Positions 8,944-54,967 of a DNA stretch of 64,000 bases are shown here, in pieces. The stretch's first letter is position 1, and each line of letters opens with the position of its first letter. The position numbers and the translations under genes were made by a program. The DNA comes from Polytrichum commune (Eukaryota > Streptophyta > Polytrichopsida > Polytrichales > Polytrichaceae): the NCBI GenBank assembly GCA_950295325.1, contig OX485809.1, forward strand, positions 13,952,001 through 14,016,000, written 5' to 3'. The notes beneath the pieces were generated by a model. The model made no database searches and had not been told where the DNA came from. It saw only the letters and a program-made list of their open reading frames with translations.

Positions 8944-9085
8944 TAGTAAGGAGCAGGTGGTACCGTACTACCGACGAATGAAACACGTGCGGGAACGGAG
9001 ACGGGCGGCTGGGGGGGCGTGCAGAGGATGCGTGAGGCATCTTCTCATCTCCTCACTCCAATTCTCTACCTCCTCGATCTACTGC

Positions 9086-13452: not shown

Positions 13453-13499
<47 letters not shown>

Positions 13500-16101: not shown

Positions 16102-16464
16102 CACTTAATATGATATTTAGTGTCACCAAGTCTTGCTCAATACTAATTGTAAACCGCATGATATTGTCACCAACACTAAAAGTTAACCCAACATTATTTG
16201 TCACTCCTTGTAAATTTTTGGGGAATGAATGGTTTACAGTGTTGCAATTACTGTCACTTCTGGAGAGATTTTTTATCGAAATTTCAATTATCCATGACAA
16301 CATTTCATCACAAGTTGTTGACAAGTGAAGGTAGGGTTTTGGCCAATGGATGAACTCATCCATCATCCATGACTATTTTTCTTCACTTGTTCATAAGAGG
16401 TGTCATATGAAAAGTTACCATAGTGACATAAAATATCAAATGACACTAAATATCATATTTAGTG
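16102..16464. mobile_element. TA-flanked MITE with 24-bp TIRs, copy in A
   Basis: The left end CACTTAATATGATATTTAG and the right end CTAAATATCATATTTAGTG are inverted repeats of about 24 bp with one mismatch, flanked by TA on both sides. The termini are themselves nearly palindromic. No coding capacity. TA duplication suggests a Tc1/mariner-type transposase in trans. Other copies: 43217-43616, 48855-49226 and 63255-63655. Confidence 0.7.
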
Positions 16465-16551
16465 TAGATGTTTTACAAATTTTAGATTTCCATGTCTATA
16501 TGTAGATATGTGTGTGACATGTAATTATTGATGGAATTTCACGTTCAATAG

Positions 16552-17340
16552 CTAGAACAAGTAGGATGTGCAAGTTGGTTGTTGTTTGCATTGTATTCTT
16601 GGGAAGATGTTCGTCGATACATAAGGTGTCTCAATGGGATTAATGAAGAACAATTTTGAATTGAGTATGTTGTAATTGATTTTTTTCCATAAAAGTTGAA
16701 TAGATTGGCATTCACTAGTTAGAGAGTATTCGTTGCAATAATTGTTGGCAGTTAGACATCGGAGATTCATCACTTGGGCAAAGTTGAAGAGCCCTGATTT
16801 CAAAGGATGTTCGGAAACATTTGGGCCCTTGGTTGGTTTAAGCTCATTGACAAACATATTATCACTCGAGTTACTAGGTTTCAAGCCATTCAGACAACTT
16901 GTGTTGGTATTAAAGAGCTTAAGCTCATCATGTTGACCAATTAGATTGTTCTAGGACGCCAAGATTTGACGAATCTCGTACGTTTGGAGATTTTTGTAAT
17001 GTTCGATTGCTTCCGTCTTACAAGCTTAGGTAGCATTTGAGCACACGGTTTATGATACAATTTGCAAGAGTTTGAAGAATAGATTATGACCCAATGCATC
17101 AGCTTGTAAAAAGTTTGGTTTTTCCCACCCTTGATTATACTACTTGAAGTGTTGGACTAGTTTGGACCCATGCCATCTTGGCCTACTACACCGTGTACTA
17201 CAGTTATGGATAATGTATAGTACATGGGTGTTAGTCGATTGTTTTTTAAATATTATGTAGCTTCTACCAATCATATTTAGGCAACCGAACTTGTATTGCA
17301 TTAGCAAATCTATTATATGATGAAGCATCACCAAAAATTG
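16552..17340 (-). pseudogene. Conserved decayed reading frame, unrecognised
   Basis: On the minus strand a frame with few stops runs from about 17340 to 16552 and includes SECQSIQLLWKKINYN and SKLFFINPIETPYV. The same frame is kept in segment C (43704-44270) and in part of B (63766-64000), with mostly silent or conservative differences in the last 110 codons. It was therefore probably part of a transposon protein, possibly of the LINE whose 3' end lies at 12660-13600 in the same orientation, but I do not recognise a domain. Confidence 0.3.
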
Positions 17341-17900
17341 GATTGGAAATCGGACTTTCCCTAATTTAGTTATGGTTATTGGAAGTGTGTCTTTGTAGAC
17401 TCTTCAACCGAAAACGTACGTCCCTTCCAATTATGTTCACTATTGAGTGTGGAGTAGTTGATAACATTTCAAAGGCGTAGTCCAATCTCTTTTAGCATGT
17501 GTCTTTTATGGTGCTCGTTCTTTAATTTTTGCCTACCCACACACCAATCCAATATAAGTGTCCGATTGAGGGTAGAATTTGAATAACACCCGCATACCTT
17601 ATGAAACCATCTCCTAGGTCATCCATGAATTGTTCGCTCGACATGTCATAGCTGATGACCAACGGTTTTTGGAATCTTTGAAACAATGATTTCGTCAACA
17701 CCCACCCATGCCCTTCGTTAGAGGTTCCTATAATGTATATATGATTTCGTGGAATTCAACGGACGACTCGTCATGAAGGGCAAGGATTCGTGCCACTAAA
17801 GTAATTTGGAGGTAAGAGTGTTGGGAGCTCAAGTTAGATGGACCCCATTCATGACTCGAGTGGCTTGAATCCTAAGCCCATCGTGACTCGTGATTGTACC

Positions 17901-27054: not shown

Positions 27055-28870
27055 TGTGAGGCCAAACCCACCACCCTTAAGCGTCCTAGTCCGGGTGATG
27101 GTTTTGAGAATTACATGTATCCTATAGAATTGAAATGGTTTGAAATGCAACTTTCATGTCCAAAGGCATCCATTTCATTTTTAAATCACAATGCTTTATT
27201 AATGCTAGTCTCTTGGTTTGTGGTGGAATTGGCTTTCTCAAGAGTCCATCCCGCCACCTTGGTCACACATGTCCTTAAAGACATCCCCCTTGCACCCTTT
27301 GGCCTAACCTCCTTTGTCTTGCCATCGCGGAGATCCTCCACCTTCTCCATTGATTGTGCACGTGATTTATTTCAACCAAAATAATACAAGTGTTAAAAAA
27401 CACTTGCCTCAATGGTCAATCACCAATACATTCAAAAGTCACACACACACCCCTACCTAGCCTAATGAATCCAACACTTACCTAAGAGCTAAGATAGTCT
27501 AAAATAATCTAGTATGGTCTAGATTAATTTTGGCGAGGCAACTAAAGTTGCTAGGCCTTGATTGGTTAATTGCAGTCCCGCAAGGGCTTAGCCCAGGTTG
27601 CTCCAGTGTTGGCTTCGGTCCAGCAGGGCTTAGCCCGGTTGCTTCAGTGTTGGCTTCGGTCCAGCAGAGCTTAGCCCGGTTGCTCCAGTGTTGGCTTCGG
27701 TCCAGCAGAGCTTAGCCAGGTTGCTCCAGTGTTGGCTTCGGTCCAGCAAGGCTTAGCTCGGTTGCTCCAGTGGTGGCTTCGGTCCAGCAGAGCTTAGCCA
27801 GGTTGCTCCAGTGTTGGTCTCGGTCTGCAGAGCTTAGCCAGGTTGCTCCAGTGTTGGCTTTGGTCCAGCAGAGCTTAGCCCGGTTGCTCCAGTGTTGGCT
27901 TCGGTCCAGCAGGGCTTAGCTCGGTTGCTCCAGTGGTGGCCTCGGTCTGCAGAGCTTAGCTAGGTTGCTCCAGTGTTGGCTTCGGTCCAGCAAAGCTTAG
28001 CCCGGTTGCTCCAGTGTTGGCTTCGGTCCAGCAAAGCTTAGCCCGGTTGCTCCAGTGTTGGCTTCGGTCCAGCAGGGCTTAGCTCGGTTGCTCCAGTGGT
28101 GGCCTCAGTCTACAGAGCTTAGCTCGGTTGCTCCAGTGGTGGCTTCGGTCCAACAGAGCTTAGTCAAGTTGCTCCAGTGTTGGTCTCGGTCTGCAGAGCT
28201 TAGCCAGGTTGCTCCAGTGTTGGTTTCGGTCCAGCAGGGCTTAGTTATGGAGTTGCATTTTAATAAGGCAACCTTAGGTGCTAATCAAACATCACACTAA
28301 CTCCCTTTTTCTTGTACTTTGGCTAAATGAACTAACTTACCTCGCTAATGAACTAATCTAACACACAACTACTCTAAGAGCTACTTAATCCACACACCTT
28401 GTCTCAAGCTCTAAGAGCTCACCCCCCTTGAGAGATAATGAGAGAGAGAGCAAAAATGAGAGAGGGAAGCCTTAAGTAGCCAAGAGGGAGAGAGGGAGAG
28501 TGAGGTAAGGATAGGGTGAGGGAATTAGCACCTCCAATCACAACCCCTTAATCCTTTCCTCCTAAGTAGGGACTCCTCCCATCCACAAAGCTCTTACATT
28601 CCTAAACCAACAAGGTGGATCCTAATGTGGGTATTTAACCCGCGGAGTTCACCTTGCCTCACCTTACTCCATACTCACCTAGTCAAGGCATCCCCTTTAT
28701 TGAACTTAAACCTTGAAACAATCACACAACACCACCTAATGTCTAAACTTAAATCCACACCACACTTCACTCTTTTTATATTTTTGTGAATAATCATAAC
28801 ATATCAAAGTCTAACTAAAATTGGTTTCAAAGAGTTAATCACCATATGTGGGCACCATTTTGGGCTCACA
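27055..28870 (-). mobile_element. LTR, TGTGAG family, copy 3
   Basis: On the minus strand it starts TGTGAGCCCAAAATGGTGCC and ends GGTTTGGCCTCACA. A perfect 5-bp duplication CCATG flanks it (27050-27054 and 28871-28875). It shares with copy 1 a segment containing ACGTGCACAA and CGCGATGGCAAGACAAAGGA. It splits an exon of the surrounding gene fragment. There is no gag or pol, so it is a solo LTR or non-autonomous element. Confidence 0.88.
27560..28245. repeat. 40-bp minisatellite inside LTR copy 3
   Basis: About 17 tandem units of 40 bp (GGTTGCTCCAGTGTTGGCTT then CGGTCCAGCAGAGCTTAGCC), with interspersed point variants that form recurring subtypes. The frames running through it are repeats, not genes. 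Copies 1 and 2 of this LTR have different tandem arrays. Confidence 0.95.
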
Positions 28871-29491: not shown

Positions 29492-30396
29492 CTAACACCA
29501 ATCGTACAAAAAAATCTGCACAAAATCGTTATTACAAAAGGTTCTTGCATGGCATATAGAGCTGAATGAAATCAAAAACAAAAAATATCCTTAAAATACT
29601 TGTACCTTGCCAGTATCAAAAAACGTAGAATCCTCATTGCACATACCTAAGTGGTTAAAATAAAACCTAATTTCAACACATATTTCAAAACGTGATTATG
29701 ATCTATGGAAGATGCACAACAAGGAAAACTAACTGAATAACAACCACATACCTTATGCACAAATTCCTTCAAACAAAGAGTTGAGAACCAAAAGACGAAA
29801 TTTGCACAAACAACTTCAAAGCTCACAAAAAATCCCAGAGCTCACAACACAGACACCACAGTCTTCTACACTCAATAGTCATCGCAATTGGGGGACCTCT
29901 CTGTATACATTTCAGGAATCAGCACACATGCATTTCCGATAACCATAACCAAATCAGGAGAGGATTCCCAACTCTATGCAAGAAACACAGAGGAAAAACA
30001 TGTACAGCACATACAAACATGTACAACATTCAAGTGGGGCATATTCAAGTGCAATAGTGGATTGCTCATTCTCTTGAAACTCTGCACTGGAATTGCTAGA
30101 CCTTGAGCTCCAGGACTCTACACAGCAAATAGAGAGTGAACACGTCAAGACATTGTGAGCATGAACAAGAAGATCACAGATACAGACCATCACAACAATA
30201 TTCCTTCCAGAAAATCCCCTCTGAACAAGATATGTATCTCCTTTCTACTCCTTGTTAGTCCATAGAGTCAACAATTGAATAGAATATATCATCTCACATG
30301 TCACTCACATATCACATCTTACCCCTTGATTGCTTCTTGCTTTGCCATAAAGGAAAATTAGGAGGGAAATTAGAAAGTTCAAGTTTTCAAGAAATT
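29492..30396. other. Flank of gypsy element, intron-like
   Basis: A stretch at about 29672-29785 is repeated, in the same orientation and with few changes, at 40640-40750 on the other side of the gypsy element. The minus strand at 29954-30193 has an open frame with SSRSSNSSAEFQENEQ that might be coding, but no family is recognised. Confidence 0.4.
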
Positions 30397-30830
30397 GTCA
30401 CGTGAGGCGACATCGGGGGCTAAGTCACGTCAAATTAGGGGTCCATGTGTGTTTGGATGGATTATGGACTCCATTGGGAGTCCTAGTTAGTTGTTCATCC
30501 ACTCCATGGATGAAATCCACATAGGATTGGGGTTATGTGGAGAGGAAGGCATCTTGACTTGCCATTGTTGTCAAGTCAAGTCTTGTGAGTGTGTTTTGAG
30601 AGAGAGAGAGTTTGTTGTTGCTATCTTATGGCTATGGTGTAGTAGATCATGAGTAAAGCCTTTGCATTCTTTCTCCATCACTTGCACTCTTGGATTCTCC
30701 CTTCGTGGAGTGAGAGATAGCTTGACTCTTGTGTGTGAATTTCAGAGTTTTTTAAGCTTTGTAAGGAGACTTCTTAGTTTCTTGAGCTTGGAGAGAGAAA
30801 CCCTCATACTTCACAACAATGGCTTATTTT
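30397..30830 (+). repeat. 5' LTR-like repeat of the gypsy element
   Basis: TGTCACGTGAGGCGACATC opens a stretch matching 39468-39888, ending where both share GAGAGAGAAACCCTCAT. The 3' copy has about 10 extra bases (TAAATGG region) near 39511 and few substitutions. The true LTR probably extends beyond 30830, but the 3' copy is cut there, so the end and primer-binding site cannot be fixed. Confidence 0.75.
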
Positions 30831-31360
30831 TGCATTTTTGGTTGTATTTCGGAGCTAGAATGGCCCAGTAGTAAGAACAAATGAGTGATACAAGTGTATG
30901 AAAGCTTAGTTTGCAATTCCTTGCAACCCTCAAGAAGATTTTGAGAGAAATCTCCGCATTTCTCTTTTGGTGTCTCTTTGTGTTTTCTTCAATTGTTGAT
31001 GGTTGAATCTTGAGACCAAATGGAATCTCAAGTCACATCTTTCTTGCTTGCAAATTGTGGAAGCAAAGTTTAATTTTTTTTTAAACAAACACAAAAAAAA
31101 TATATATATCCGACTTGTTTTTAATTTTTTTTATTGAGCTCCGGACGGATCCGGAGCTCACCGGACCCTCCTGGAGCTCTGAAATTCTTGGCAGTGGCAG
31201 GTAAGCCTTTTTTTAAATTTTTTAAATTTTTTTTGTTTTTTTTTGTTTTTGTTTTTAAAATAAAAACAATTATTTTCATTTTCATTTTCATTTTCACATT
31301 TTTACTTTCACCTTTCAAACTTGTCATTTGACTCTCACAAACTTTGAGGTTCAAATTTGG

Positions 31361-31645
31361 GGGCATACTAGCTCCGATTGGAGTGAAATTTGAGCCTATC
31401 TTGTGTGAAATTTGCCAAGGAATCCAATGGTGTAATTGGATTGTTGATTGAAATTCAAAATCATTGCTGAAATTATTAATTTCAACGCTGATTTTTGTTT
31501 TTGGGAGCAAATTAACTCCGAACGGAGTGAAATTTGAGCCTAATTTGTGTGAAATCTTCCTAGGAGTCCATTGGTGCAATTAGTTTGTTGATTGGAGTCC
31601 ATAATTACCTTGGAAATTAGCATTTTCAACGCTGATTTTTTAAAT
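31361..31645. repeat. Two-copy direct repeat in the gypsy leader
   Basis: Two diverged copies of about 135-140 bp (about 31361-31495 and 31503-31645) share GGAGTGAAATTTGAGCCTA, TTGTGTGAAAT and TTTCAACGCTGATTTTT. They lie between the 5' LTR and gag, where packaging or translation signals would be expected; that role is speculation. Confidence 0.7.
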
Positions 31646-31802
31646 TTTAATTACCAATCTCGAAACCTTTGCACAATTTTGGAATTCTGGGGGCATAAAT
31701 AAACACTTGGCATTTGGCAAGGGATTGCCATTTAGATAGCCCGCAACAGGTGCAGGTTGCCATTACCTTGTAGATAGTTGCAGGAACTCAAGTGATTATT
31801 TT

Positions 31803-33571
31803 ATGGTGCAAACTAGGAGCCGATATTATCGATCTCCATCACCAGATTACTTGGAGGACGTGCATACCACAAATCTTGAGCCAGAGGTAGATACCAACGA
31901 GGCTTTTGAGCCTATTTCAGCGTTGGACACTACTAGTAGGCTTCGGATTTGGAGTGTCGGCACGTTCGACGAAATGGAGGACGATCGCCACAATTTAGTG
32001 CGTGATCAGTTTTTAGGTCGAGCTGGGGGCATTTCCTTGCCCGATTGGAAACTCCGGTTTCGTACCTGGATTAAGGAGAAACGCCAAAGGTCTTCCAATT
32101 TCAATGATTAGTATGCCTTTGAACTTCTGCCTCAGCATTTGGAGTATGAGGCACTCCAAACTTATGAACGTTGGACAGAGGGTCATCAGCGACAACTTCG
32201 GGAGGTGGAGCAGTATTGGGAGGCTCGGGTTGAGCTTATTTCAACCCTTAAAGATGGGGCGGTTGCTACCTTAGCTCCACCCACCTTAAAGGAGGAGGAA
32301 TCGCTGGAGGAGTCTAAGGACAAAGAACTGGCACTTGGGCCAATAGTGGCTGGCAGTAGCACGGCTACCCTTTCACGGATGGCACGTACTACACAGGCAG
32401 CATTGACGGTTGTTGGTCCACCACCTCCATTTAATCCCCTTGCTGAATTTGTCGCACATTTGGAGGTGGAGTATGGTGGATTTCGGCGAGACCAGATGCA
32501 GCGCATTCAGGATTTCCGCCGAGAGAAGGATGATACTCCACGGACCATGTATACGCGACTCGCACGCTTTGCTGTTGAATCGGGAGGTGTTTTTGCTGAG
32601 AGCCAGCTTGTCAAAATCTTTTTATCTAAGATTGACAAGCGGCTACTTGAGTTGGCATCACCTCGGATTATCCTCGACTACGAAGGCAGAGCTACGCTTG
32701 CACAAGCGTTTGCCGTGGTTGAGAGATGTGATCGGGCTCTTTGTCAACACGATGCCACAGACATGGTATCTTGGATGACAGAGAGTACGAAATCAAGAAG
32801 AATTGTCACAGCTACTAGTAGTTTAGCTGAGACTCAAGCCGTTAAGGAGCAAAAGATTTTGCATTGTTGGGGTTGTGGAGAAGCTGGTCATTCGAAGAAT
32901 GATCCCAATTGTCCTTAGAAGAAGAAAACCCAACCTTTGGGAAAATTAAAACAAAAGATGGAACCAGTAAAGACAGGGGAGAATTCTAAGAAGAGACAAT
33001 TGAAATGTAACCATTGTGGTGGCACTAATCACGATGTGGATCATTGTTTCCAACTTCATCCTGAGATGCGGCCTGCCAGTTATGTCACTGGCAAATCTCC
33101 AAGGGAGCAGAGTCTTGAGGCTAAGGTGGCAGAGCTTGAGCAAAAGCTCAAATCTTCTGCATCTTTTGCTCAAATTTTTGAGCCGCATGTGGATGGGGGC
33201 ACCTCGGGTTCGGACATGTATATGTTTGGGGCATCTGGAGAGGTGGTGGCTGCGGCTTTTACTCGATCACAAACATTGGCAAATGCAGTGGCTTCTTCAA
33301 GTGGTGGTAGCAACGAGGTGTCACATCCTCGCCATGCCCGACCAGCGGATCAAGTTGGTCAAGCACGTTTACCTCTCTCATTTGGATTGGTAGACACCAC
33401 TGTTGTTGGGGCTAAAAACCCTGTACCTTTGAAAGATGGGGATTCCATCTCGAAGGATGTTACGCAAGCATTGGCGTATAAAATTCTCCATATGCCAATT
33501 TTCTCGGGTTTGGAGTTGATGGCTCCGGATTTCAAGCCTGCTGGAGTTTTCCATTTAGCTGGAAAATGTTA
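31803..33571 (+). pseudogene. gag of the methyltransferase-carrying gypsy element
   Basis: Starting at the ATG at 31803, one frame runs to 33571, broken by TAG at 32109-32111 and at 32916-32918. The N-terminal and middle parts have capsid-like character, including EFVAHLEVEYGGFRRDQMQ and a helical region. Two zinc knuckles follow: CWGCGEAGH with the last Cys two residues later than usual (from 32865), and a canonical CX2CX4HX4C (33006-33047). The product would form the particle and bind RNA. Near 33560 the coding frame changes, and a further block (33562-33800, with a TAA at 33599) continues in another frame towards the protease. Confidence 0.75.
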
Positions 33572-33794
33572 GAAGGAAAGGCGGATTTGCCATCCCTTTA
33601 AGTATCCCAAGCTGTTGTTGACGTACCTGTGGCTGCGGAGGTGGAGGACTTAGCCAATTTGCGAGCGAGCCTTGCGGATGCGGCGATCATTGCTTTTGGT
33701 AAGCACACTGATATTCCTCCATCAACAATTTCAGCAATGGACACGTCATTTTCGAATTATGCAGCGGGAGCGGCATATCTTGCAGATATATGTA

Positions 33795-34400
33795 AGGCCT
33801 GCTCGCGAGCGGCATAATTTGCAACCTGGAGTTGTACGGCTAATGAACGATAGATCTTTGTTTGTCGTCTCACGCACGGATATGCCTACTATTCGTGCTA
33901 CACCACTGAGAATTATGATGGATTCCGGTGCTCAACCGGTTATGATTGGCAAAGGACTTGCTGACAGTCTTAGATTGACGCCAACAAACTTAGATCCTTG
34001 TCCATTCACAATTGTGACTTTAGTAGGGGGCATTGAACGTGCAATAGGTTATACCAAGGCACCTCTACGTTTGATTTTTAATGTGGGGGCAGGACCTACC
34101 TACACTCATTTGTCAATGAAGTGTGTTGTTACTAATGCTACCAACTATGATATACTTGTTGGTCAGCAAGCTCTTTATCCACTTGGCTTTGGTTTGGATA
34201 ATTGGACTGAAGAGGCATGGATTAGACCGGGATGGTCTTCTGGAGATGGCAGGAAGGTATTTATTCCTGTAGCATTTACAGCTACTTCTATGACTATGGT
34301 TGCGGAGGAAATGTTTGGTTGTAGCGGTTCAGTTGCGGATTTGCCTTGTGGTCCAGTTTTGTTGGAGGAAACATTGGACTACGCTTGTAATGCAGCAGAA
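33795..34400 (+). CDS. Retroviral-type aspartic protease domain
   Basis: The protease lies at the start of a frame that stays open to 35399 and also includes the methyltransferase. The active-site motif is MMDSGAQPVMI, with DSG at 33921-33929, followed about 75 residues later by YDILVGQQALYPLGF, the usual second hallmark of gypsy proteases. It would cleave the polyprotein as a dimer. The frame proper begins near 33795, where it takes over from the preceding block by a frame change; the ATG at 33672 lies in the shadow of that other frame and is unlikely to be the start. Confidence 0.8.
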
Positions 34401-34589
34401 CAACAAATTTTGCCATCTTTACAAATTCATGCTCGACATTTCAAGGATCCACCTCCACCATGGCGTACCCCTAAGGAGTTATCCGACCATTGTCGACACA
34501 TTGTAGCGGACTTGGGGCTTGGAGAGACGCCTCCAACGTCATCCTCATTTTCTTTTGCTCAACCCATCCGTTGGCAACCACCACCTAAA

Positions 34590-35570
34590 GGTATTGTCCT
34601 TGTAGAAATCTTTGGGGGCATTGGCATAGGTTTGGCAGCAGTGTTGGAGGCTGGGATTACAGTTAGGCGATATATTCATGTGGATAATGGATATGCAGCC
34701 AACAGAGCCGTCCGACACCACATCCAACAATTGTTGTTGAGGTACCCCGCACAATTGTCAGCCTCTGCCATTCTTGGATGTTGTGGTCAACTTCCTCAAG
34801 ATGTCACTATGATTAGTGATGAGAATTTGAGAAGATTGGGTCACGTGGATTTAATTATTGCAGGATGGCATTGTCAAGGTCATTCACGGGCAGGAACTGG
34901 CCAGGGTTTGGATGATCCTAGGTCTAGTTTGTTCGCGAATTTGATGCGATTAACACAATGGTGGTTTACCCACCAATCAATTCCGCCAGGGTACATTTTT
35001 GAAAATGTGCCATTATTGGGTGATACACGGTACAAAGTGGTGAAGGATGGTGAGTACATTAACCAAATTCTGGGTACTCCAACATTTATGGATGCTGCAT
35101 CCTTGGGATCCTTTGTTCATCGGCCTCGTTGGTTTTGGACCAATTTGGTATCACCTCAGGTGCTTTCAGCGGCGATCGCCCGCATTCCCCGCCTTATAGA
35201 TCGCAAGGTGGATGACATTTTAGATACTCATCGTGTTTCGTTGGCAGTAACCAAGGATGACACCTTGCCATTTGCAATAATTAACAAGGTGGGAATTCCG
35301 AGAGGTGCACTACCTACTTTTGTGACATATCCACGGTCTTTTGCATTTCGATCTCGTGGACCAGGCATGGTTTGGGATTTAAAAATTCCAAACTTATGAT
35401 GAGCCTACGGCAGATGAGCGGGAACGAGCCATGGGTTTTCCTACAGGCACCACGGCTGCTCATGGGCTTCAGGAAGGTCAGAGACGTTTCCTATTGGGAC
35501 AAGCTATGGATCTCAATAGCATGGTGTGGATAATTGGAATTTGTCTTGCTGCTCAACAACGTATGGATGA
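34590..35570 (+). pseudogene. DNMT3-like cytosine-5 DNA methyltransferase domain in a retrotransposon
   Basis: Motif I is VLVEIFGGIGIGLAAV (from 34596), the S-adenosylmethionine site. Motif IV is AGWHCQGHSRAG, with the catalytic Cys at 34872-34874; most C5 methyltransferases have Pro before it, here His. Motif VI is FENVPLL (about 34998). A DNMT3-type motif VIII region reads AASLGSFVHRPRWFWTNL. After it come TFVTYPRS and, across a frame change near 35390, a motif X-like region with RERAMGFPTGTT and FLLGQAMDLNSM (35419-35515). The order and spacing resemble the DNMT3 group more than DNMT1/CMT. The domain would methylate cytosine in DNA, perhaps the element's own copies. Frame change and Pro-to-His change suggest this copy is inactive. 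It sits between protease and reverse transcriptase. Confidence 0.88.
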
Positions 35571-36945
35571 CCAATTGCTTCCTCTGAGGGCAGAGAACAA
35601 TGGTCAGGGGGCAATAGAGCCGCAATCCAAGGATCACATGGAGGTCAATGACACCAACGGATTATTTTCTTTGAAACAACAGGTTGGAGAAGAGTTTCGA
35701 GCCTAACGTGTTTTTTCGGCTTTGGCCCAAGATTTTGGGAAGTTGGAGGCCCATAAAATGTTTCCACTTCTATTTCTTGGTGACACTTCATATGTGGGTA
35801 GTTATTTACCTACACAAATTGATTGTAGTGGAGAGGATACGCATTTGGATTCAAGTACAGATGATGGGGGCAAAGGTGTTGCCCTCTCCACGGACTAGCA
35901 ATCACAGGTTGTACTGGCACCAAGTGGCAATCTTTCTATGAAGAAGGAAACCACGGAGTTTGACGATTGGCCAATTGAAGTGGGGCCAAAACTTACTGGT
36001 GTCGAAGCACGAAAGGTACGGGCATTTATTCGCTCTTACCGTAATTGTTTTGCCTTTAGTCTTCATGATCTTGAAGGATATAAAGGTAAACATGTTCGTA
36101 TTCAACTCGAGGATGACCATCCTATTTTTAGACGACTGTACAGACTTAGTACATCTGAAAGGTTGGGTGTTCAAACTCGATGTCAAGAATTATTGGCAGC
36201 GGAATTGATTGAACTCTCCAATGGAGAGTATGTTTGTACCACGGTTATGCCTTCAAAGAAAGATATCTTTGGCAACTGGACGGAAAAACGGATGTGTGGT
36301 GATTATCGTCCAGTCAACCGCAAGACCAAGTCGGATCGATATCCAATGCCGATGCCAGAGGAATTGTTTGATGCACTGGGATTTGCTAGAATCTTCAGCA
36401 CTCTGGATTTGAGGTCTGGTTATCATCAATTACCTTTGTTGTTGGGTGATCGGATAAAGACCGCATTTTGGGGAATTGATAAAGATGGCAAGGATCAACT
36501 TTATCATTGGAAATTTTTGCCATTTGGTCTTAAGAATGCACCAGCTGAATTTCAACGGGTGATAGATCAATTATTGGCTGGTTTACCGTTTGCTAGATGT
36601 TACATTGATGATGTTATCATCTTTAGTAATAGTCCACAGGATCATGTGAGACATTTGCAAGCGGTATTTGAACGACTACAACGGTGGGGACTCCGTTTAC
36701 ATCATGGCAAATGTAAGTTTTTCCATGATCGATTGCCCTATTTAGGCCACATGATTGTTCCTGGCGGTCTTGGTGTGCAACAGGCGAAAGTGGATGTTTT
36801 GCACAAAATTCCCGCACCTAGTGATGTACCACGACTTCGGGCATTTCTAGGATTGGCAAATTATTATAGAAAGTTTGTCAAAAACTTTAGTTTGATTGCC
36901 AAACCTCTCACCATTCTCACGGGAAAAAACCAACCATGGATTTAG
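35571..36945 (+). pseudogene. Reverse transcriptase (gypsy type)
   Basis: The frame from about 35395 continues through TAA (35704-35706) and TAG (35896-35898), then is open from 35938 to 36945. Reverse-transcriptase motifs are present in order: DYRPVNRKTKSDRYPMP, FSTLDLRSGYHQLPL, LPFGLKNAPAEFQRV, the catalytic CYIDDVIIF (YIDD at 36601-36612), and YLGHMIVPGGLGV, then the thumb FLGLANYYRKFVKNF. The catalytic aspartates are intact. The frame is cut by TAG at 36943-36945, where related elements usually have Trp (TGG) at the connection to RNase H. It would copy element RNA into DNA. Confidence 0.93.
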
Positions 36946-37440
36946 AGTCGGGAACAACAACATGCATTTGATACATTGAAGCAGAGGCTCGGTTCAACGC
37001 AAGTGCTTCGACGCCCGGATGTGTCTAGAGCTTTTCAATTGCACACGGATTGGAGTGCAGTGGGATTGGGAGCGGTATCGATACAGAAAGATGAAGAGAA
37101 AAAGGAATATGTGGTGGCTTATGCATCTAGAAGCAATAATAATGCTGAATCTAATAATTCTTCTTATGAAGGCGAGGCCTTGGCGGCCGTTTGGGCCATT
37201 GCACATTTTCGACCTTATTTGTATGGGCAAAAAATTACTTTGGTGACTGATCATCAGTCTTTAAAATGGCTTATGAAATCAGATAAACTCACCGGGAAAC
37301 TTGCTAGGTGGACATTATTACTTCAAGAATATGACTTTGAAGTTGTTCACCGAGCAGGAATTGCCAACTTGGATGCAGACGGATTGTCTCGCAATTCAAG
37401 TCCTTTAGATGAGGATTTAACTGGAGCCAGGTGGCATGGA
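36946..37440 (+). CDS. RNase H domain
   Basis: This is the first part of a frame open from just after the TAG at 36943 to 39063. It contains AFDTLKQRL, then LHTDWSAVGLGAV with the first catalytic Asp, SSYEGEALAAVWAI with the catalytic Glu, LVTDHQSLKWLM with the next Asp, and ends RAGIANLDADGLSR. This is a standard Ty3/gypsy RNase H that removes the RNA template. All key acidic residues are visible. Confidence 0.92.
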
Positions 37441-37539
37441 GATTGTGATCGTGAGGCAGTGCCGGGTTGGCATGCTGCCACATATATTACAATGATGTCG
37501 GGATTGGCTGCTGAGATCCTTGTGAAAGAACAAGATGAG

Positions 37540-38830
37540 GAGGTTGATAAATCTCTCGTTGTTAGTGATATGTGGGAAGATCAGGCGGTCTTGCACAAAC
37601 TTCAACAAGGGATATTTCCTCTTAGACTATCTGCTATGGAGCGAGATAGAATTAGCCATCGAATAACAAGGTTTCGTTGGGCAAACGGCTTGTTATTTCG
37701 TGTGTGGCCAAACGGAACGAGGTGCATCGTTCCAAGGCCATATCAAAGAGCTTCTTTAGTGCGGCAAGTGCACGAGGAGTTTGGAGATTTTGGAGTGCGA
37801 AGGACACACTCTATGTTGCGCAACCAATATTGGTGGACTGGTATGTATCAACAGGTTGCCACTTATGTTTCTCGGTGTGAAGTATGTGACCGGGTCAGGT
37901 CAAGTTTTAATACTTTATCACCTCAACTTCAGCCTTTACCTATTATGGGCTTGGGATATCGTTGGTATTTGGATTTTGCCGGACTGCTTACTATCACTCC
38001 ACGTGGAGCAAAGTATGTACTTGCGATGGTGGAACATTTTAATAAGTGGATTGAACTCGTGGCTCTTCCCCAAAATTCCTCAGAATTGGCGGCTATGGCA
38101 TTTTTTGATCGAGTTTTGGCACGGTTTGGAGCACCTGCAGAGGTGTTGACGGATCAAGGGAGAGAATTTCTTAGATCTTTCGAGGCTTTGTGTACTAAGG
38201 CTTTGATTGATCATCGAACAACTTCCAGAGATCACCCTGAGGCAGATGGCTTAGCCGAACGAGTTGTTCAGACTGTCAAGCGCGGTTTGCAGAAGTATGG
38301 GTTGTTTCATGGCAACCATCGCGATTGGGACTTGATGTTACCATGGATAGCAATGGGTTACCGTTTCAACAGGCAAGCATCTTTGGCATCCTATAGTCCT
38401 TACCAACTCTTGTATGGACGGGAACCAATTTTACCTAGCTCTGTGCGAGAGAAATTGGCTCATGTGGTAAACTTGGATGATCCAGATGTTTGGGCTCAAT
38501 GTCTTCATGACCGAGCAGAATTCTTTCAAAAGGCCATGCCTATGGCCATGAAGAACTTAAACATAGCTCAACATCGTGATACATTACGGTATGCCCGGAT
38601 CCGCAGTGGAGCTTATCGACCTCAAGTTCGTAGATTTTCCAAGGGGGATTATGTTTACTTGCAACAGGAGACGCCTACGACATTGGATGTCAAGGCTGGG
38701 CGCACAATTTTGCGGGTAAAAGATGTTTTACCAAGTGGTATATTATTGCTTGAAGGCAAGGACGGACGGGAATGTCGTGAGCATTCAAAGAATTGTACTC
38801 CATGTCACCTTCCCATCGACGGCTCTGTGC
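37540..38830 (+). CDS. Integrase (gypsy type)
   Basis: The HHCC zinc-binding domain is seen as VHEEFGDFGVRRTHSML, then CEVC (about 37767-37895). The DDE core is complete: Asp in YLDFAG (37972-37974), Asp in LTDQGREF (38152-38154) and Glu in GLAERVVQTV (38257-38259), with 34 residues between the last two, as in the family. It would insert the cDNA into the genome. Downstream is the SH3-like region (KGDYVYLQQETP, then ILRVKDVLPSGILLLEG), followed not by a chromodomain but by a PHD finger. The frame is uninterrupted. Confidence 0.93.
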
Positions 38831-38865
38831 ATCCCGAGTTGGCGGTTGTACCACAGGGTCTGTCT

Positions 38866-39063
38866 TGTTATGTGTGTGGGGAGAAGAAAGGAGCTGCAAC
38901 GATGTTATTGTGCGACCATTGTCAACGTGGATGGCACATGGCATGTTTGACACCTCCCATTTTTATTCTTTCTTCTGGCAATTGGGTTTGTCCTCGTTGT
39001 CGGAAAGCCTCCCACTCCATGGTCATGATTAGGGACTTTGTGGATGTTTGCCACATGTCTTAG
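38866..39063 (+). CDS. C-terminal PHD finger on the integrase
   Basis: The last residues of the polyprotein contain all eight zinc ligands of a C4HC3 PHD finger: CYVC, LLCDHC, GWHMAC and CPRC (38866-39000), with the usual Trp before the His and the GNWVCP ending. PHD fingers read modified or unmodified histone H3 tails. Placed at the integrase C-terminus, it could steer integration to chromatin with a given mark, as chromodomains do in chromoviruses; this is inference. The frame ends with TAG at 39061-39063, and a TGA follows one codon later. Confidence 0.9.
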   Translation, partial: CYVCGEKKGAATMLLCDHCQRGWHMACLTPPIFILSSGNWVCPRCRKASHSMVMIRDFVDVCHMS

Positions 39064-39367
39064 TGGTGAAGTTGTTATCTAGTTGGTCGGAAGTTTTATG
39101 GGATTGAAAATCACATTGGGAGAGTTATCAAAGAATTCAACATAAATTGTTGAAGGCGATTAATGATGGGGCTCACATTGCATCCAGCCTACAATTCTTG
39201 GGTTACTTTCTCAACCATGAATTTAATTCCTTAGATTACCACTACCCAATTGGATATGTATAGATGTAGCAACAACTTCATCATGTTCAGCACCTCTACC
39301 GATGAGTGTGTTTGTTTCTAGCCGATTGGAGGGGCTCCTTATCTGCTAGGGAGGGCACTTGAAGAGG

Positions 39368-39986
39368 TGGTTGTTTAGCATATTAGTTTGCTATGTTTAT
39401 TTTGCTAATTGATGTAGATGACGACACTCGATCTGTTGTGTTTAACGATCTTAGTTTACACGACAGCTGTCACGTGAGGCGACATCGGGGGCTAAGTCAC
39501 GTCAAATTAGGAGTAAATGGAGTCCATGTGTGTTTGGATGGATTATGGACTCCATTGGGAGTCCTAGTTAGTTGTTCATCCACTCCATAGATGAAATCCA
39601 CATAGGATTGGGGTTATGTGGAGAGGAAGGCATCTTGACTTGCCATTGTTGTCAAGTCAAGTCTTGTGAGTGTGTTTTGAGAGAGAGAGAGCTTGTTGTT
39701 GCTATCTTATGGCTATGGTGTAGTAGATCATGAGTAAAGCCTTTGCATTCTTTCTCCATCACTTGCACTCTTAGATTCTCCCTTCGAGGAGTGAGAGATA
39801 GCTTGACTCTTGTGTGTGAATTTTAGAGTTTCTTAAGCTTTGTAAGGAGACTTCTTAGTTTCTTGAGCTTGGAGAGAGAAACCCTCATTGGTTGTTTAGC
39901 ATATTAGTTTGCTATGTTTATTTTGCTAATTGATGTAGATGACGACACTCGATCTGTTGTGTTTAACGATCTTAGTTTACACGACA
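39368..39986 (+). repeat. 3' LTR flanked by a 98-bp direct repeat
   Basis: The LTR-like segment 39468-39888 matches the 5' LTR start but stops after CCCTCAT. Immediately before (39368-39465) and after it (39889-39986) is the same 98-bp sequence, starting TGGTTGTTTAGCATATTAG and ending TTTACACGACA. The first copy follows a purine-rich GAAGAGG that could be part of the polypurine tract. The arrangement indicates a tandem duplication or recombination that removed the LTR end. Confidence 0.8.
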
Positions 39987-40218
39987 AAATGTCAAACCTA
40001 GATGGACCAAGACAGTAGAAGTTCATGGCGTACAATTTCTTGGCATATGGTTATTATGGCGTTATATAGTGTTGGACCTTGCAATAGGTACAGGATGCAC
40101 AAACAATAAAAATCTTGCAAGCTTACACACCTAGATTATGAAGGTATTAAACTGAACATTGTTTGAGTACAATATTCAACTGAAAATTCTACGAAATATT
40201 GCAACTTACATGGGTTAT

Positions 40219-40647
40219 TCACCTCAAGCAAAAAGTGAAGTAACGTTGTCCAAACGTGGAGTCAGATGATACCGAGTTCTGGGCTTTTTGAACAGCCCTA
40301 TGCACAGCAGAAGACACCCGCGGGGCGCAATTACTCACGAACAAGCCACGAGGAATGTCATGTGGATGTAGTTGAGCCATTCGTGAAACTTCCCGAAACA
40401 CAAATTTAGCATCTAAATCAGATGGAAAACATGTTTGCACATGCTTGACAAACAACACCTCATTGGATTCATCAAGCCTCCTCTCTCGCACCAAATCAAC
40501 CCCTTCTTGACTCTTGCATATCCGTGACTGAGTGAAGATTGCTGAAGACAATCCTGCAAATTCCAGTTCACCAAATATTGATGAGCAAGCCACACCTCCC
40601 TCGAGCAGGCTAAGGTATGCAGGTCCACATAATTCAATGCAACACAT
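40219..40647 (-). CDS. Unrecognised exon or remnant, 142 codons
   Basis: An open minus-strand frame containing LSLLEGGVACSSIFGELEF, RICKSQEGVDLVRERRLDE and FVFREVSRMAQLHPHDIP ends in TGA at 40219-40221. The composition looks protein-like and a possible splice acceptor lies near its upstream end. I recognise no domain. Its upstream flank (40640-40750) is repeated at 29672-29785 on the other side of the gypsy element, so it may belong to the same disrupted transposon-like locus as the minus-strand exons at 24.3-29.5 kb. Confidence 0.4.
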   Translation of the reverse strand: MCCIELCGPAYLSLLEGGVACSSIFGELEFAGLSSAIFTQSRICKSQEGVDLVRERRLDESNEVLFVKHVQTCFPSDLDAKFVFREVSRMAQLHPHDIPRGLFVSNCAPRVSSAVHRAVQKAQNSVSSDSTFGQRYFTFCLR

Positions 40648-41097
40648 ATTTCAAGACGTGATTCTGATCTATGGAAGATGCACAACAAGGAAAACTATCC
40701 GAATAACATCCGCATACCTTATGCACAAATTCCTTCAAACAAAGAGCTGAGATCATTTGAGAGGAGTCATGCTTTGACAATGCATATAATTATTATTTAC
40801 AGAGCTTTGTGAAGTAATTCCTCAACCTCATCTACCATGCCTCGATTAATTATAAAAAGTTGGAGTTGGCATGAGGTGCTTTTGATAACATTGGGACTGA
40901 TCTTTGAATACAACTATCTAAATGTGAATTATCCGAGTTATCTAGTTATGGAGCTCCTTGTTTAATTGATTAGTGCTCAAATGGGATACAATTATCTAGT
41001 TTCAATTACCCTTCCTATTATGTCTTGCTCAAATTTTCAGTTGGCCACCATTATTTGAAAACATTGTCCACAATGTCTTCCTTGTTTCAAGTTTCAG

Positions 41098-42889: not shown

Positions 42890-45199
42890 TTCAAATGAAC
42901 CCTGGCACGTGGCGGCGGCTACCTTTGAGTTCATTACCGTTTTGACTAGTACCGCCATTTCCATTGCCTTTTTTACTACAAAGAGGGTGACCCTGGGTTA
43001 ATTCATTTATGTAACAAACATTATGTACTTTGACACCAATTATACCCGTGAAGGGTAGTCGTTACCACTTTGGTAGCGACTAGGTAGACACTAAGTAGTC
43101 ACTAGGTAGCTATTTCAATATTATGGATATGCACTCTACATGCTAGGGTGACCACTAGGTTGTAGTTTTGGAGCATAGTCACTATGGGACAACAATAATC
43201 CGTGGGGAGGGTAGTACACTTAATATGATATTTAGTGTCACCAATTCTAATTGTCTTGCTCAATACTAATTGTAAACCGCATGATATTGTCACCAACACT
43301 AAATGTTAACCCAACATTATTTGTCACTCCTTGTAAACTTTTGGGGAATGAATGGTTTACAGTGTTGCAGCTACTGTCACTTCCGGAGAGATTTTTTATC
43401 GAAATTTCAATTATCCATGACAACATTTCATCACATGTTGTTGACAAGTGAAGGTAGGGTTTTGGCCAATGGATGAACTCATCCATCATCCATGACTAAT
43501 TTTCTTCACTTATTCATAAAAAGACTATGTTTCTTCAGTTATTCATAAGAGGTGTCATATGAAAAGTTACCATAGTGACATAAAATATCAAATGACACTA
43601 AATATCATATTTAGTGTAGATGTTTTACAAATTTTAGATTTCCATGTCTATATGTAGATATGTGTGTGACATGTAATTATTGATGGAATTTCACGTTCAA
43701 TAGCTAGAACAAGTAGGATGTGCAAGTTGGTTGTTGTTTGCATTGTATTCTTGGGAAGATGTTGGTCAATACATAAGGTGTCTCAATGGGATTAATGAAG
43801 AACAATTTTGAATTGAGTATGTTGTAATTGATTTTTTTCCATAAAAGTTGAATAGATTGGCATTCACTAGTTAGAGAGTATTCGTTGCAATAATTGTTGG
43901 CAGTTAGACATCGGAGATTCATCACTTGGGCAAAGTTGAAGAGCCTTGATTTCAAAGGATGTTCGGAAACATTTGGGCCCTTGGTTGGTTTAAGCTCATT
44001 GACAAACATATTATCGCTCGAGTTACTAGGTTGCAAGCCATTCAGACAACTTGTGTGGGTATTAAAGAGCTTAAACTCATCATGTTGACCAATTAGATTG
44101 TTCTAGGACGCCAATATCCAAGATCCAAGATTTGACAAATCTCATACGTTTAGAGATTTTTGTAATGTTTGATTGCTTCCGTCTTACAAGCTTAGGTAGC
44201 ATTTGAGCACACGGTTTATAATACAATTTGCAAGAGTTTGAAGAATAGATTATGACCCAATGCATCGGCTTGTAAAAAGTTTGGTTTTTCCCACCCTTGA
44301 TTATACTACTTGAAGTGTTGGACTAGTTTGGACCCATGCCATCCTGGCCTACTGCACTTATGGATGACGTATAGTACGTGGGTGTTATTCGATTGCTTTT
44401 TTAAATATTATGTAGCTTCTACCAATCATATTTAGGCAACCAAACTTGTATTGCATGAGCAAATCTATTATATGATGAAGCATCACCACAAATTGGATTG
44501 GAAATCGGACTTTCCCTAATTTAGTTATGGTTATTGGAAGTGTGTCTTTGTAGACTCTTCAACCGAAAACGTACGTCCCTTCCAATTATGTTCACTATTG
44601 AGTGTGGAGTAGTTGATAACATTTCAAAGACGTAGTCCAATCTCTTTTAGCATGTGTCTTTTATGGTGCTCGTTCTTTAATCTTCGCCTACCCGCACACC
44701 AATCCAATATAAGTGTCCGATTGAGGGTAGAATTTGAATAACACCCGCATACCTTATGAACCATCTCCTAGGTCATCCATGAATTGTTCGCTCGACATGT
44801 CATAGCTGATGACCAACGGTTTTTGGAATCTTTGAAACAATGATTTCGTCAACACCCACCCATGCCCTTCGTTAGAGGTTCCTATAATGTATATATGATT
44901 TCGTGGAATTCAACGGACGACTCGTCATGAAGGGCAAGGATTCATGCCACTCATGTAATTTGGAGGTAAGAGTGTTGGGAGCTCAAGTTAGATGGACCCC
45001 ATTCATGACTCGAGTGGCTTGAATCCTAAGCCCATCGCGACTCGTGATTGTACCTAAGAAATAAAGGTTAAAGAAACGGAATCAATGTCCTTGCACTCGG
45101 TCGGTATTCTTTGTCTTTCTTGCGTAGCACAATTTGCACATGCACTTTGCCTTGAAACAAGGTAAGGAATGAGCTACTAGGGTTAACCCTTGAAGCTAC
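42890..45199. repeat. Segment C: third copy of the A/B right part
   Basis: It matches 15772-17900 and 18942-19090 in order and orientation, lacking the 1041-bp hAT element of A, and so records the pre-insertion state. It also holds its own copy of the TA-flanked MITE (43217-43616) and of the decayed minus-strand frame (43704-44270). Identity with A is high. Confidence 0.9.
43217..43616. mobile_element. TA-flanked MITE, copy in C
   Basis: Same TIRs as at 16102-16464, flanked by TA. The interior contains an additional short TTATTCATAA-type duplication shared with copy B. Confidence 0.7.
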
Positions 45200-51952: not shown

Positions 51953-54900
51953 GTTGGTTACTACAATGGGGGAGCATCACCCTAAAACAACTCATCAATG
52001 TTATTTGGGGGGTGGAGTTTCTAGCCAACTAACTCTAAAAATAAGCATCAAACATTTAGGTCATTTTCTTACCGCATACCAAAATCGAGTTGACTTGAAT
52101 GCACGGAGTATCAAATTTGGTGTGAGTGTGTGTAACTTAGGGGTTGTTTACACCATGGACCATGAGGTCGTCCTAAGGTCCAGTAAAATTTGTGATTTGG
52201 TTGTTGAGCGCGTCCCGGGACCACTTCGGTTTACACTAAGGAAAAAAATGTTAGAGTGATCATGGAGTTTGAAGTCCCCAAAGGACATGTTTCAAGGCCT
52301 ACGTTATCCACTGACATGGTCCAATGGGTTTTGGGTGGGAGAGGCAAAACATGTGCTCTACTAGAAGAAACTAGGGCCCATGGCAAAGAAATGACGTTAT
52401 GATAATTTTTTGATGAAATGTTTTTAGGGGAAGAGAAGACGAAGATGAAAAAAGGACAAGAGAATGGTCAAACCTCGAGTTTTTTGTTCCTTCCAAAATT
52501 GCCCTTTTTGGGCATACTTTAAACAAATTAGCACACTCACTTTTGGGTGCATGGTCATTCCTCTTGGTCCACATTCGGTCTACACCTAGTGAAGGGCCCA
52601 AAGACTTTGTAAATTGGTTTTTATAAGTAATCGGACCATGAATGTTGGACCATGGAAAAAGGCCATCTTCCATGGTCCGATTTCATGGTCCATGGTGTAA
52701 ACCGGCCCTCGCTAATCCCTCGCTAATATAATAGACTGAAATGACAAAAATGAATGCCAATTCAAAAGGATGGCAATTTGCATCTTGTTATAAATGGGAA
52801 TGTTGTAGTGTGGTTGGAGCTTAAGAAGTGCATTGCAAATTCACAAGTCCAATAAAGTAATTGCTCACAACCCGGGGGTTGCGACCCATGTTTAACTTTT
52901 GAAATCATGTGCGTTCAAAGGGTCATTTGACCCCCCCCCCCCTCTCCACAAAGCTCATGGAATGGAATGGAATAAAATCTACACATGCATTTAAGTGTGG
53001 GAGAAATAAGTGCAATATATGCACATCCAATAACAAAGTCAATGGAATAAAGGCCATAGGTTAAGTATATGGCAATTATGTAAGAGGGTAAAGGTATCCC
53101 CTTTCATGTGCATAACGTACAAAGACTATTTTTTATTTTTAGAGCTGTTAAAAGTATTTTACTTGCTCAAAACTGATGTTTGTAGAGACTTAGACTTAGT
53201 CTACCATCAAGTGACCAATATTCATGGACAATTTCTCATTTGATATCCAATTGAAATCCCTTATGTCCAAGCTTTATCGTCCATTTGTCATCTGTCCCCC
53301 AATCCTTTTAAACAATTGTCTAAAAGCCCTACCCCACCCTACCATAATGTTGATTTCTTAAGGATGTCCTTTGAGCCTCTTCCGTCTGCCTATATCTTTT
53401 ACTTTTACAATATGTAGAGGTTGCATATATTTTGTATATCGTCATTCTAATAAAACCCCCTCCTATGCACTAACTCACTTGGTTTAATTGCATCATTGCA
53501 GTGTAACTAATCTCACATGCATAAAGTGCACTTCAAAGATTGCATAAGGATTCAACATAACAAAAGTGAAGAAATACTCATTATTTGGACAATTTTTTTA
53601 AAGCTCGTAGAAATTCTCTAAGAAAATGAAACTATTTTTGCCAATGGATGCTTTGCAAAAATCAACTATTTTTATGTATTTCAAAGATTGATTTTCGTCA
53701 TGTATTGTGGATCGTAGTTAGGTTTTTATGACCAGGATTAAAACAACGAGAACCTAGGATGTTGTGTGACTAATTTTGGGCAGCTTGACAATCATATGTC
53801 GGCCCTACTTGTAAAAGCACTTGTCTTCTAGCTTTGGGTTTTCCACAGTGTTTGACCCCGGCCTTTACATTTTACAAATAACTCTATATGTTGCCATTAT
53901 ATCCAAACCAAAATATTCAAATTCCATCGTGCTTAAAATATTATTTTCAATATAAGGTGCTAGATTAAAAATATAAATAGAAATTTCAATCAACATCCTT
54001 AAAGTCCTCTAAAAGGCATACCATGTATGTAGAGGATTGCAACTCCCCTCTCTTTGCATTTAATGCTTATGATTAGGAACCCTCCTCTTCCTCTCAAATG
54101 ATTCTCCCATGTAAAATAATGGCATGATATGACAAGGAAAATGGGAGCCACCACACATGTGACTCGATGGAGTAAACTTCTTGCCAATACCATGCATTGA
54201 ACCACGGTCGCATAACACATAATTACTTCAACCCTTGTCCTATGAGAAAATGGCATAATAAAGTAGGGAATTGGGAGGTACAACACAATCTCCTTCATAT
54301 AAAGTTATCCACTTGAATGTTGTGCATTTCATTTGGTCATGAACGCATTCTATCAGCCTAAGATCACATGGGTATACTAAGGCTTCGCCCGAATATGAAA
54401 TTATGGCACAATATGATGAGGTTGGGAGCTACAACATATCCCATCACATTCCACCATGCTAATATAATGTACCAAAACATCTAGCCTTACAAAGGTAATG
54501 TAAATACGTTAAGTCTCATGTGTAAGCACTTGGTTGATATGAAGAGGAAGCAAAAGCTACAACATGTCTCATATGATGGAATACTCTCTTCTTCATTGTA
54601 GTGTATTTCATCAAGGTAAATCACATAGTATTGTTCAACTTTGGAAAGAACACATATTTACACCAAGCCTTGTGTTAGATTAACTTATGGTAGGATATAA
54701 TAAAGATATGGGGTTTTCAAACATCCCATCACATTCCACATTCAGCACAATGTCTCGCACATTTTAATAATGTATAGCATCATCAAGCCATAGAAAAACA
54801 AAAGTTTGCACAATGTATTCTCTCATATAATAATTAAAAAATCCATGATAAGAAAATGGGAGCTACAACACGTTACGGCAAGGAAAAATGTACTTCAACC

Positions 54901-54967
54901 CTACTAGAATAAACAAATATCTACGCCAAGAAGTACACTATGTCAAATATGATAAGAAATGATAAGT
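51953..54967. repeat. Repeat R, most complete copy
   Basis: It joins in one piece what is split into 6908-8479 and 1-2692 at the left of the window, and continues past 54967 into sequence absent from copy 1a because of the CACTA insertion there. It contains the Tourist-like element 52141-52708. The reading frames (for example 52371-52673 and 53999-54298, minus) are eroded and unlike known proteins. Confidence 0.85.
52141..52708. mobile_element. Tourist-like TIR element in the full repeat R
   Basis: Terminal inverted repeats GGGTTGTTTACACCATGGAC and, on the other strand, GGGCCGGTTTACACCATGGAC. Same family as 56192-57275, where the TAA duplication is intact. Confidence 0.6.

What the first reader, a model, noticed from the sequence alone, without database searches (positions are those of the whole stretch)
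34590..35570. Ty3/gypsy retrotransposon encodes a DNMT3-like cytosine methyltransferase between protease and reverse transcriptase
Seen: motif I (VEIFGGIGIGL), a catalytic-Cys motif IV, FENVPLL, a DNMT3-type HRPRWFWTNL and a motif X-like region, in the same polyprotein as DSG protease and YIDD reverse transcriptase. Known: methyltransferase capture by retrotransposons has been reported in charophytes and dinoflagellates, and is rare. Inference: the element could methylate its own new copies, trading immediate silencing for tolerance by the host.
Basis: partly seen in the sequence, partly recalled or inferred. Interest (0 to 1): 0.92.

Follow-up and report, generated by a model that had tools for sequence, protein, structure and literature searches.

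The report
Retrotransposon carrying a DNA methyltransferase
This is a decayed copy of a jumping gene that carries its own DNA-methylating enzyme, a known but rare kind; relatives turn up in liverwort and Sphagnum moss genomes, although a 2019 article said land plants have none.

Summary
The window contains a ~9.6-kb Ty3/gypsy-type element (30396-39986, flanked by a 4-bp AAAT repeat) with a DNMT3-type cytosine-C5 methyltransferase (MTase) between protease and reverse transcriptase (RT). Pfam, PDB sequence search and a confident model of an intact relative's domain point to DNMT3. This copy is dead (stops, frame changes, an altered residue beside the catalytic Cys), but 105 database relatives have a near-complete domain, and one pairwise comparison shows purifying selection. 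The kind is published: KnitGypsy-Dnmt3 of Klebsormidium nitens. Not found in the papers seen: (1) relatives in named land-plant records (Marchantia, Calypogeia, Sphagnum); (2) an integrase ending in a PHD finger; (3) a shared UAG-CAA-UCA stop between MTase and RT, so the MTase should be made at Gag level; (4) co-varying self-primer and primer-binding site; (5) a second architecture with the MTase between RNase H and integrase. The A...B-A-B repeats around a DDE-integrase element (DIRS-like, as reported for K. nitens) suggest integration from a permuted, perhaps circular, form. Methylation of the element's own cDNA is the best guess, untested here. Host, number of captures and enzyme activity remain unresolved.

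The parts
30392..30395 (.). left 4-bp target-site repeat AAAT
30396..30807 (+). repeat A, 5' copy (begins TGTC)
   Evidence: 412 bp; 406 of 421 alignment columns identical to the 3' copy
30561..30576 (+). putative self-primer inside repeat A (overlaps a possible hairpin)
   Evidence: 15 of 16 complementary to 30808-30823; 0 of 300 shuffles as good; hairpin weak here (20 of 200 shuffles as good), strong in L030 (0 of 200)
30808..30823 (+). putative primer-binding site directly after repeat A
   Evidence: similar relation in L030 with co-varied bases
31740..33572 (+). gag region in pieces (31740-32111, 32112-32918, 32919-33572) with CCHC-like knuckles
   Evidence: no significant Pfam match; homologous to the N-terminal parts of P0013, P0016, P0051 and L030; knuckles read by eye
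33891..34046 (+). aspartyl protease core (MDSGAQ)
   Evidence: PF13975 E 0.0094, PF13650 E 0.0099, both below cut-off; homologous P0005 passes the PF13650 cut-off
34590..35399 (+). DNMT3-type cytosine-C5 methyltransferase domain, open part (motifs I, IV, VI, VIII)
   Evidence: catalytic Cys codon at 34872-34874; alignment
35398..35565 (+). rest of the methyltransferase domain (motif X region LLGQAMDLN) in a shifted frame; end approximate
35566..35895 (+). tail after the methyltransferase, conserved in relatives; one in-frame stop in this copy
35896..35904 (+). UAG CAA UCA: stop between MTase and RT frames, Type I readthrough motif
   Evidence: same 9 nt at the same place in L030; motif as in PMC11166343 (passages)
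36280..36756 (+). reverse transcriptase
   Evidence: PF00078 4.3e-30; nearest solved Ty3 RT 3e-49
36946..37332 (+). RNase H
   Evidence: PF17917 9.7e-35; a stop separates it from RT in this copy
37744..38238 (+). integrase zinc-binding and catalytic core
   Evidence: PF17921 8.9e-15, PF00665 2.3e-12
38866..39000 (+). PHD finger at the C-terminus of the integrase
   Evidence: PF00628 1.1e-8; solved relatives of the L030 copy
39361..39367 (+). putative polypurine tract GAAGAGG abutting repeat B
   Evidence: read by eye; purine-rich stretch at the same place in L030
39368..39465 (+). repeat B, inner copy (98 bp)
   Evidence: 100% identical to 39889-39986
39462..39471 (.). GACA-GC-TGTC palindrome at the B|A junction
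   Evidence: same 10 bases in L030 at 7051
39468..39888 (+). repeat A, 3' copy (421 bp)
39889..39986 (+). repeat B, outer copy; element ends ...GACA
39987..39990 (.). right 4-bp target-site repeat AAAT

Best explanation
The element is an inactivated member of a widespread family of Ty3/gypsy-type retrotransposons that carry a complete, unrearranged DNMT3-type cytosine-C5 methyltransferase. In the window's branch the order is Gag-protease-MTase, a UAG stop, then RT-RNase H-integrase-PHD. Shown: domain order, DNMT3 affinity, conservation of the domain, stop motif, split repeats. Inferred: because the MTase lies before the (presumably leaky) stop it is made with every Gag-protease chain, released by the protease and packaged in the particle, where it methylates cytosines (most likely CG) of the newly made cDNA; the integrase's PHD finger reads a histone H3 tail and helps place the new copy. 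New copies would then arrive already marked like host heterochromatin, lowering the harm per insertion or hiding the DNA from host defence.
Against: No activity was or could be shown. The K. nitens enzyme was inactive in yeast, called inconclusive. The element is not more CpG-depleted than its flanks. In the second architecture the MTase lies in Pol, behind RT, so Gag-level dose is not a family rule. Six relatives have Glu for the motif-IV Pro. The MTase is less constrained than RT and integrase, about like the protease. The PHD ligand is a guess: the matches also include readers of other marks (KMT2C/D, DPF3, KAT6A).
Confidence: 0.55

Rival explanations
1. The MTase acts on RNA: it methylates cytosines of the genomic RNA in the particle to aid packaging, stability or translation, not DNA.
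For: A particle-borne Gag-level enzyme would meet the RNA first (inference); de Mendoza et al. raise RNA methylation for the SymbioLINE enzymes.
Against: Sequence and fold are of the DNMT3 DNA type. No DNMT2 (RNA-type) chain is among the matches up to E 1, all of which are shown.
Confidence: 0.15
2. The MTase is kept as a non-catalytic or scaffold domain (binding DNA, or other MTase units, as DNMT3L does; the DNMT3L comparison is recalled).
For: Six relatives have ECQ for PCQ; constraint is weaker than on RT and integrase.
Against: The motif-IV Cys is kept in 103 of 105 near-complete domains, and 96 of 105 match the motif-VI pattern (pattern counts).
Confidence: 0.12
3. The domain is a passenger: a chance capture without function that happens to be carried along.
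For: This copy's domain is broken.
Against: Purifying selection in the one pair compared, many divergent relatives with near-complete domains and two positions in the polyprotein.
Confidence: 0.05
4. The MTase serves the host: methylation damps transposition and lowers insertion load, the element profiting through host survival.
For: Proposed in PMC5890265 (section 11); hard to tell from self-marking by sequence.
Against: No host data here.
Confidence: 0.13

Closest known systems
KnitGypsy-Dnmt3 of Klebsormidium nitens (PMC5890265; abstract, text parts 1-2 of 7, sections 9-11 and passages seen; no figures or supplement)
   Same: LTR gypsy domain composition, unrearranged Dnmt3 in the polyprotein, repeats described as arranged like DIRS, purifying selection on the MTase.
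   Different: Its sequence was not obtained here, so relatedness is untested. The main text mentions neither PHD, readthrough, Marchantia nor Physcomitr-. MTase placed there in the 'Pol polyprotein ORF'; here before a stop that separates it from RT.
SymbioDIRS-Dnmt3 and SymbioLINE-Dnmt of Symbiodinium (same paper)
   Same: C5-MTase carried by a retrotransposon; Dnmt3 kind in the DIRS case.
   Different: DIRS with tyrosine recombinase or LINE; here a DDE integrase (rve).
DNMT3A/DNMT3B/DNMT3C catalytic domains
   Same: Best sequence and fold matches of the relatives; shared DA..xxAHRxRxxWxNL and ExERxxGF...T...R..LLG stretches.
   Different: About 24% identity in aligned residues; PCQ instead of PCN; inside a polyprotein, no PWWP or ADD match by Pfam.
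Self-priming Tf1/Sushi and Tcn1 Ty3/gypsy elements (PMC6317226, passages)
   Same: Primer-binding site complementary to the element's own 5' repeat.
   Different: Those are chromoviruses; here the 12 Pfam families listed for the integrase frame include no chromodomain. Placement against Tcn1 in a tree was not tested, nor was the primer site compared with tRNA sequences.

Membership tests
Ty3/gypsy (Metaviridae-type) retrotransposon | RT most similar to Ty3-type RT | tested here: met
   best solved match Ty3 RT 4ol8, E 3e-49
Ty3/gypsy (Metaviridae-type) retrotransposon | order protease, RT, RNase H, DDE integrase | tested here: met
   protease below cut-off in this copy
Ty3/gypsy (Metaviridae-type) retrotransposon | short target-site duplication | tested here: met
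   AAAT on both sides; about 1 in 256 by chance for one placement
Ty3/gypsy (Metaviridae-type) retrotransposon | two complete LTRs, one at each end | tested here: not met
   A at the 5' end only, B-A-B at the 3' end; so filed as Ty3/gypsy by coding region, not as a plain two-LTR element
DIRS-type element | split direct repeats A-coding-B-A-B | tested here: met
DIRS-type element | tyrosine recombinase, no target-site duplication | tested here: not met
   rve integrase instead and AAAT repeat
DNMT3 C5-methyltransferase | motifs in the order I to X, unlike rearranged DRM | tested here: met
   model of the L030 domain
DNMT3 C5-methyltransferase | closest to DNMT3 by sequence and fold | tested here: met
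   on relatives of this copy; plant DNMT3 genes were not available for comparison
DNMT3 C5-methyltransferase | de novo DNA methylation | not testable with these tools
   needs enzyme assay
KnitGypsy-Dnmt3 | Dnmt3 in a gypsy polyprotein with DIRS-like repeats | tested here: met
KnitGypsy-Dnmt3 | common descent with the K. nitens element | not tested
Self-priming (Tf1-type) elements | 5' repeat complementary to the primer-binding site | tested here: met
   15 of 16 in window and in L030, 0 of 300 shuffles each, poorer in cross-comparison; the L030 stretch was chosen after the match was seen
Type I readthrough (UAG CAR YYA) | motif at a stop followed in frame by a conserved coding region | tested here: met
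   efficiency not measured

The most novel reading that the evidence does not exclude
These DNMT3-carrying gypsy elements integrate from a circular, two-LTR form. By the positions of the putative primer-binding site (after A) and polypurine tract (before B), reverse transcription should give B-A at both ends; the integrated copy instead is A-coding-B-A-B with a target-site repeat, TGTC...GACA ends and a GACA-GC-TGTC palindrome at the B|A junction. A DDE integrase would thus cut an internal palindrome of a two-LTR circle, a route that in retroviruses is held to be a dead end (recalled), and would use a DIRS-like replication cycle without a tyrosine recombinase.
Probability: 0.25. Interest if true: 0.85.

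Novelty: new variant of a known kind. Interest (0 to 1): 0.6.

Why it matters
Retrotransposons normally suffer DNA methylation; a family that has kept its own de novo-type methyltransferase turns that around and makes it testable whether elements mark their own copies. [quoted passage not shown] named Marchantia, Calypogeia and Sphagnum records argue otherwise for bryophytes. Marchantia is a tractable laboratory plant in which this can be studied. The split repeats and self-primer make the replication cycle itself open to test.

Tried and rejected
Phage or bacterial origin of the MTase: the viral-contig scan gave 29 loci, best segments 28-55% identical. Eleven were tried for the trees, one (L002) fell to a length filter, ten went into and eight into, where they part from retrotransposon MTases plus DNMT3 on one branch. 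Against a clean split: the bacterial-type P0023 fell on the DNMT3/retrotransposon side (long-branch warning).

Single capture: the quick tree put all 55 retrotransposon rows in one clade (SH-aLRT 99), but in the careful tree DNMT3A/B lie unresolved among them. AU tests reject neither one clade of all 43 (p 0.383), nor of all 20 type-I rows (p 0.21), nor of the 17 rows of the window and bryophyte branches (p 0.318). No plant DNMT3 gene was available and DNMT3A/B went in as partial pieces, so the number of captures is open. Dropped before, 16 of 69 rows: 12 of 16 of unknown architecture, two phage rows, HhaI and P0023; four unknowns (P0003, P0006, P0011, P0012) were counted as type I by similarity.

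RT and integrase trees (quick): type I is one side of a branch in both (95 with 6 rows; 99 with 3 rows); few type-I rows, long-branch warnings.

Selection: the MTase tail piece gave dN/dS 1.53, but there L030 was read in a wrong frame, so I discard it. Element-specific CpG depletion: not seen; repeat A alone is low (0.272).

Host identity: ten flanking frames gave no Pfam match above cut-off, Rfam and tRNA scans gave none; the host is not identified. First structure model, of the window ORF, was poor (pLDDT 53) and not searched. RT pattern search of viral contigs found nothing.

Literature on bryophyte copies: listings show no title on them; of the papers listed, passages of PMC10952607, PMC11244446, PMC12344493 and PMC6338049 and the stated parts of PMC5890265 were seen, the rest not opened. 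PHD-carrying gypsy integrases: listings (two papers each, not opened). The library lacks most subscription papers.

Full report
What is there. The window holds one such retrotransposon, on the + strand. Repeat A lies at 30396-30807 and 39468-39888 (96.4% over 421 columns including a 9-base gap), repeat B (98 bp, identical) at 39368-39465 and 39889-39986. The layout is A-coding-B-A-B; B has only these two places in the window. AAAT flanks the whole on both sides, and the element runs TGTC...GACA. Between lie gag pieces, a weak aspartyl protease, a DNA_methylase domain, RT, RNase H, integrase and a PHD finger.

State of this copy. It cannot make its full proteins: gag is split by stops and, read by eye against P0001, by frame changes; the MTase frame shifts before motif X, a stop follows in the tail, and another lies between RT and RNase H. 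The residue before the catalytic Cys is His; of 105 near-complete database domains 97 match a pattern with Pro there, six have Glu, two have lost the motif. The two A copies differ at 6 of 412 aligned bases beside the gap, so the insertion is not very old; I give no date.

Relatives. Three protein searches returned 23, 64 and 144 proteins, overlapping (120 of the 144 listed). Among the 185 distinct listed proteins thirty carry land-plant or charophyte names: Marchantia polymorpha 21, Calypogeia fissa 3, Sphagnum troendelagicum 2, S. fallax 2, Closterium sp. NIES-54 1, Marchantia paleacea 1; 27 of the 30 have an MTase hit with my profile, 9 of them near-complete. Several sit on contigs of 8 to 31 Mb, so contamination is unlikely for those. 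L030 is a 9285-bp contig filed under a cyanobacterial MAG, with 127 identical bases at both ends; I take it as a plant or algal contaminant and an intact relative (both long frames open).

Architectures. With profiles made from L030, 190 rows were scanned (185 database proteins, 5 pieces of L030 and window). PR-MT, the window's order, is seen in 46; 36 show RT-RH-MT-IN-PHD, a second type. The counts depend on the queries used and many rows are fragments. The 23 type-II MTases in the tree form one clade (99/99). Of 55 database proteins with an integrase hit 44 also have a PHD hit; 7 of the other 11 end within 29 residues of their last hit.

Expression. In L030 the Gag-PR-MTase frame ends in UAG followed by CAA UCA, and the RT frame goes on in the same frame; the window has the same nine bases. 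At about 75% identity in this stretch the likeness alone is no proof; the fit to UAG CAR YYA, called the Type I readthrough motif in PMC11166343 (passages), is the point. Twenty of 66 proteins that end after the MTase share one kind of tail; they are related, not independent. So in this branch the MTase should be made at Gag level and RT, integrase and PHD at readthrough level. This is inferred.

Priming. The 16 bases after the 5' A pair 15 of 16 with 30561-30576 inside A; in L030 comparable places (7236-7251, 7415-7430) pair 15 of 16 with different letters (0 of 300 shuffles each; cross-pairing scores 9 and 8 against 13). By eye, three positions changed on both sides. The L030 stretch was chosen after I had seen the match, and its end of A is not defined. 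The primer overlaps a hairpin, strong in L030 (z -4.29), not significant in the window (z -1.39). In plants self-priming was predicted for Tcn1 and TAR lineages (PMC6317226, passages).

Integration. A purine run GAAGAGG abuts B1 and the primer site abuts A1. Standard reverse transcription would then give B-A at both ends. The integrated form is permuted by B, and the B|A joint is GACA-GC-TGTC in both elements. Integration from a two-LTR circle would explain this; the evidence is one copy here, plus the published legend that K. nitens repeats are structured like those of DIRS. The circular L030 contig does not decide it, as an assembler can fold any repeat-ended element into a circle.

Selection. 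Window against L030: MTase dN 0.22, dS saturated, dN/dS bootstrap 0.053-0.112; RT 0.025-0.079; integrase 0.014-0.034 (dS set to 3 where saturated). These are rough but far below 1.

Function. Published SymbioDIRS DNMT3s methylate CG in yeast; the K. nitens one did not, inconclusively. The element's CpG ratio is 0.652, flanks 0.626 and 0.524, L030 0.817: no sign of extra loss. The solved relatives of the PHD include CHD4, PHF12, UHRF1, KDM5, PHF21A and AIRE, but also KMT2C/D, DPF3 and KAT6A; that many of the first group bind H3 tails unmodified at Lys4, and the last ones other marks, is recalled. That DNMT3 itself has an H3-reading ADD domain is also recalled, and makes the pairing of MTase and PHD suggestive only.

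Novelty. Already known: DNMT3 capture by a gypsy element with DIRS-like repeats. Not found in the papers seen (see Tried and rejected for the searches): bryophyte members, the PHD finger, the stop after the MTase, the self-primer, the second MTase position; the figures and supplement of PMC5890265 were not seen and may hold some of these.

Noticed in passing
window 8945-13580 and 58170-62906: Large local duplication at 98-99% identity; further repeats (2-2692 / 52267-54967, 16371-17900 / 43523-45054) make the window strongly duplicated.
   Followed up: no
window 27575-28244: Tandem array with a period of about 41 bases.
   Followed up: no
window 29674-29786 and 40640-40752: A 113-bp direct repeat (94%) lies about 610 and 654 bases outside the two ends of the element; unexplained.
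   Followed up: no
L030 1-9285: A contig filed as a Synechococcales MAG is an intact relative of the element with identical 127-base ends: likely contaminant, circular by assembly or in fact. P0006, named as a Candidatus Obscuribacterales protein, is likely another contaminant.
   Followed up: partly
proteins P0117, P0118, P0124, P0126, P0127, P0128: Six proteins of the second architecture have ECQ instead of PCQ in motif IV, Cys kept.
   Followed up: no
window 35566-35895 and tails of P0002, P0003, P0006: A conserved stretch of about 100 residues after the MTase (...EELRAQRVFAALAQDFG...); no Pfam match for it in P0002 and P0003.
   Followed up: no
[quoted passage not shown]
   Followed up: no
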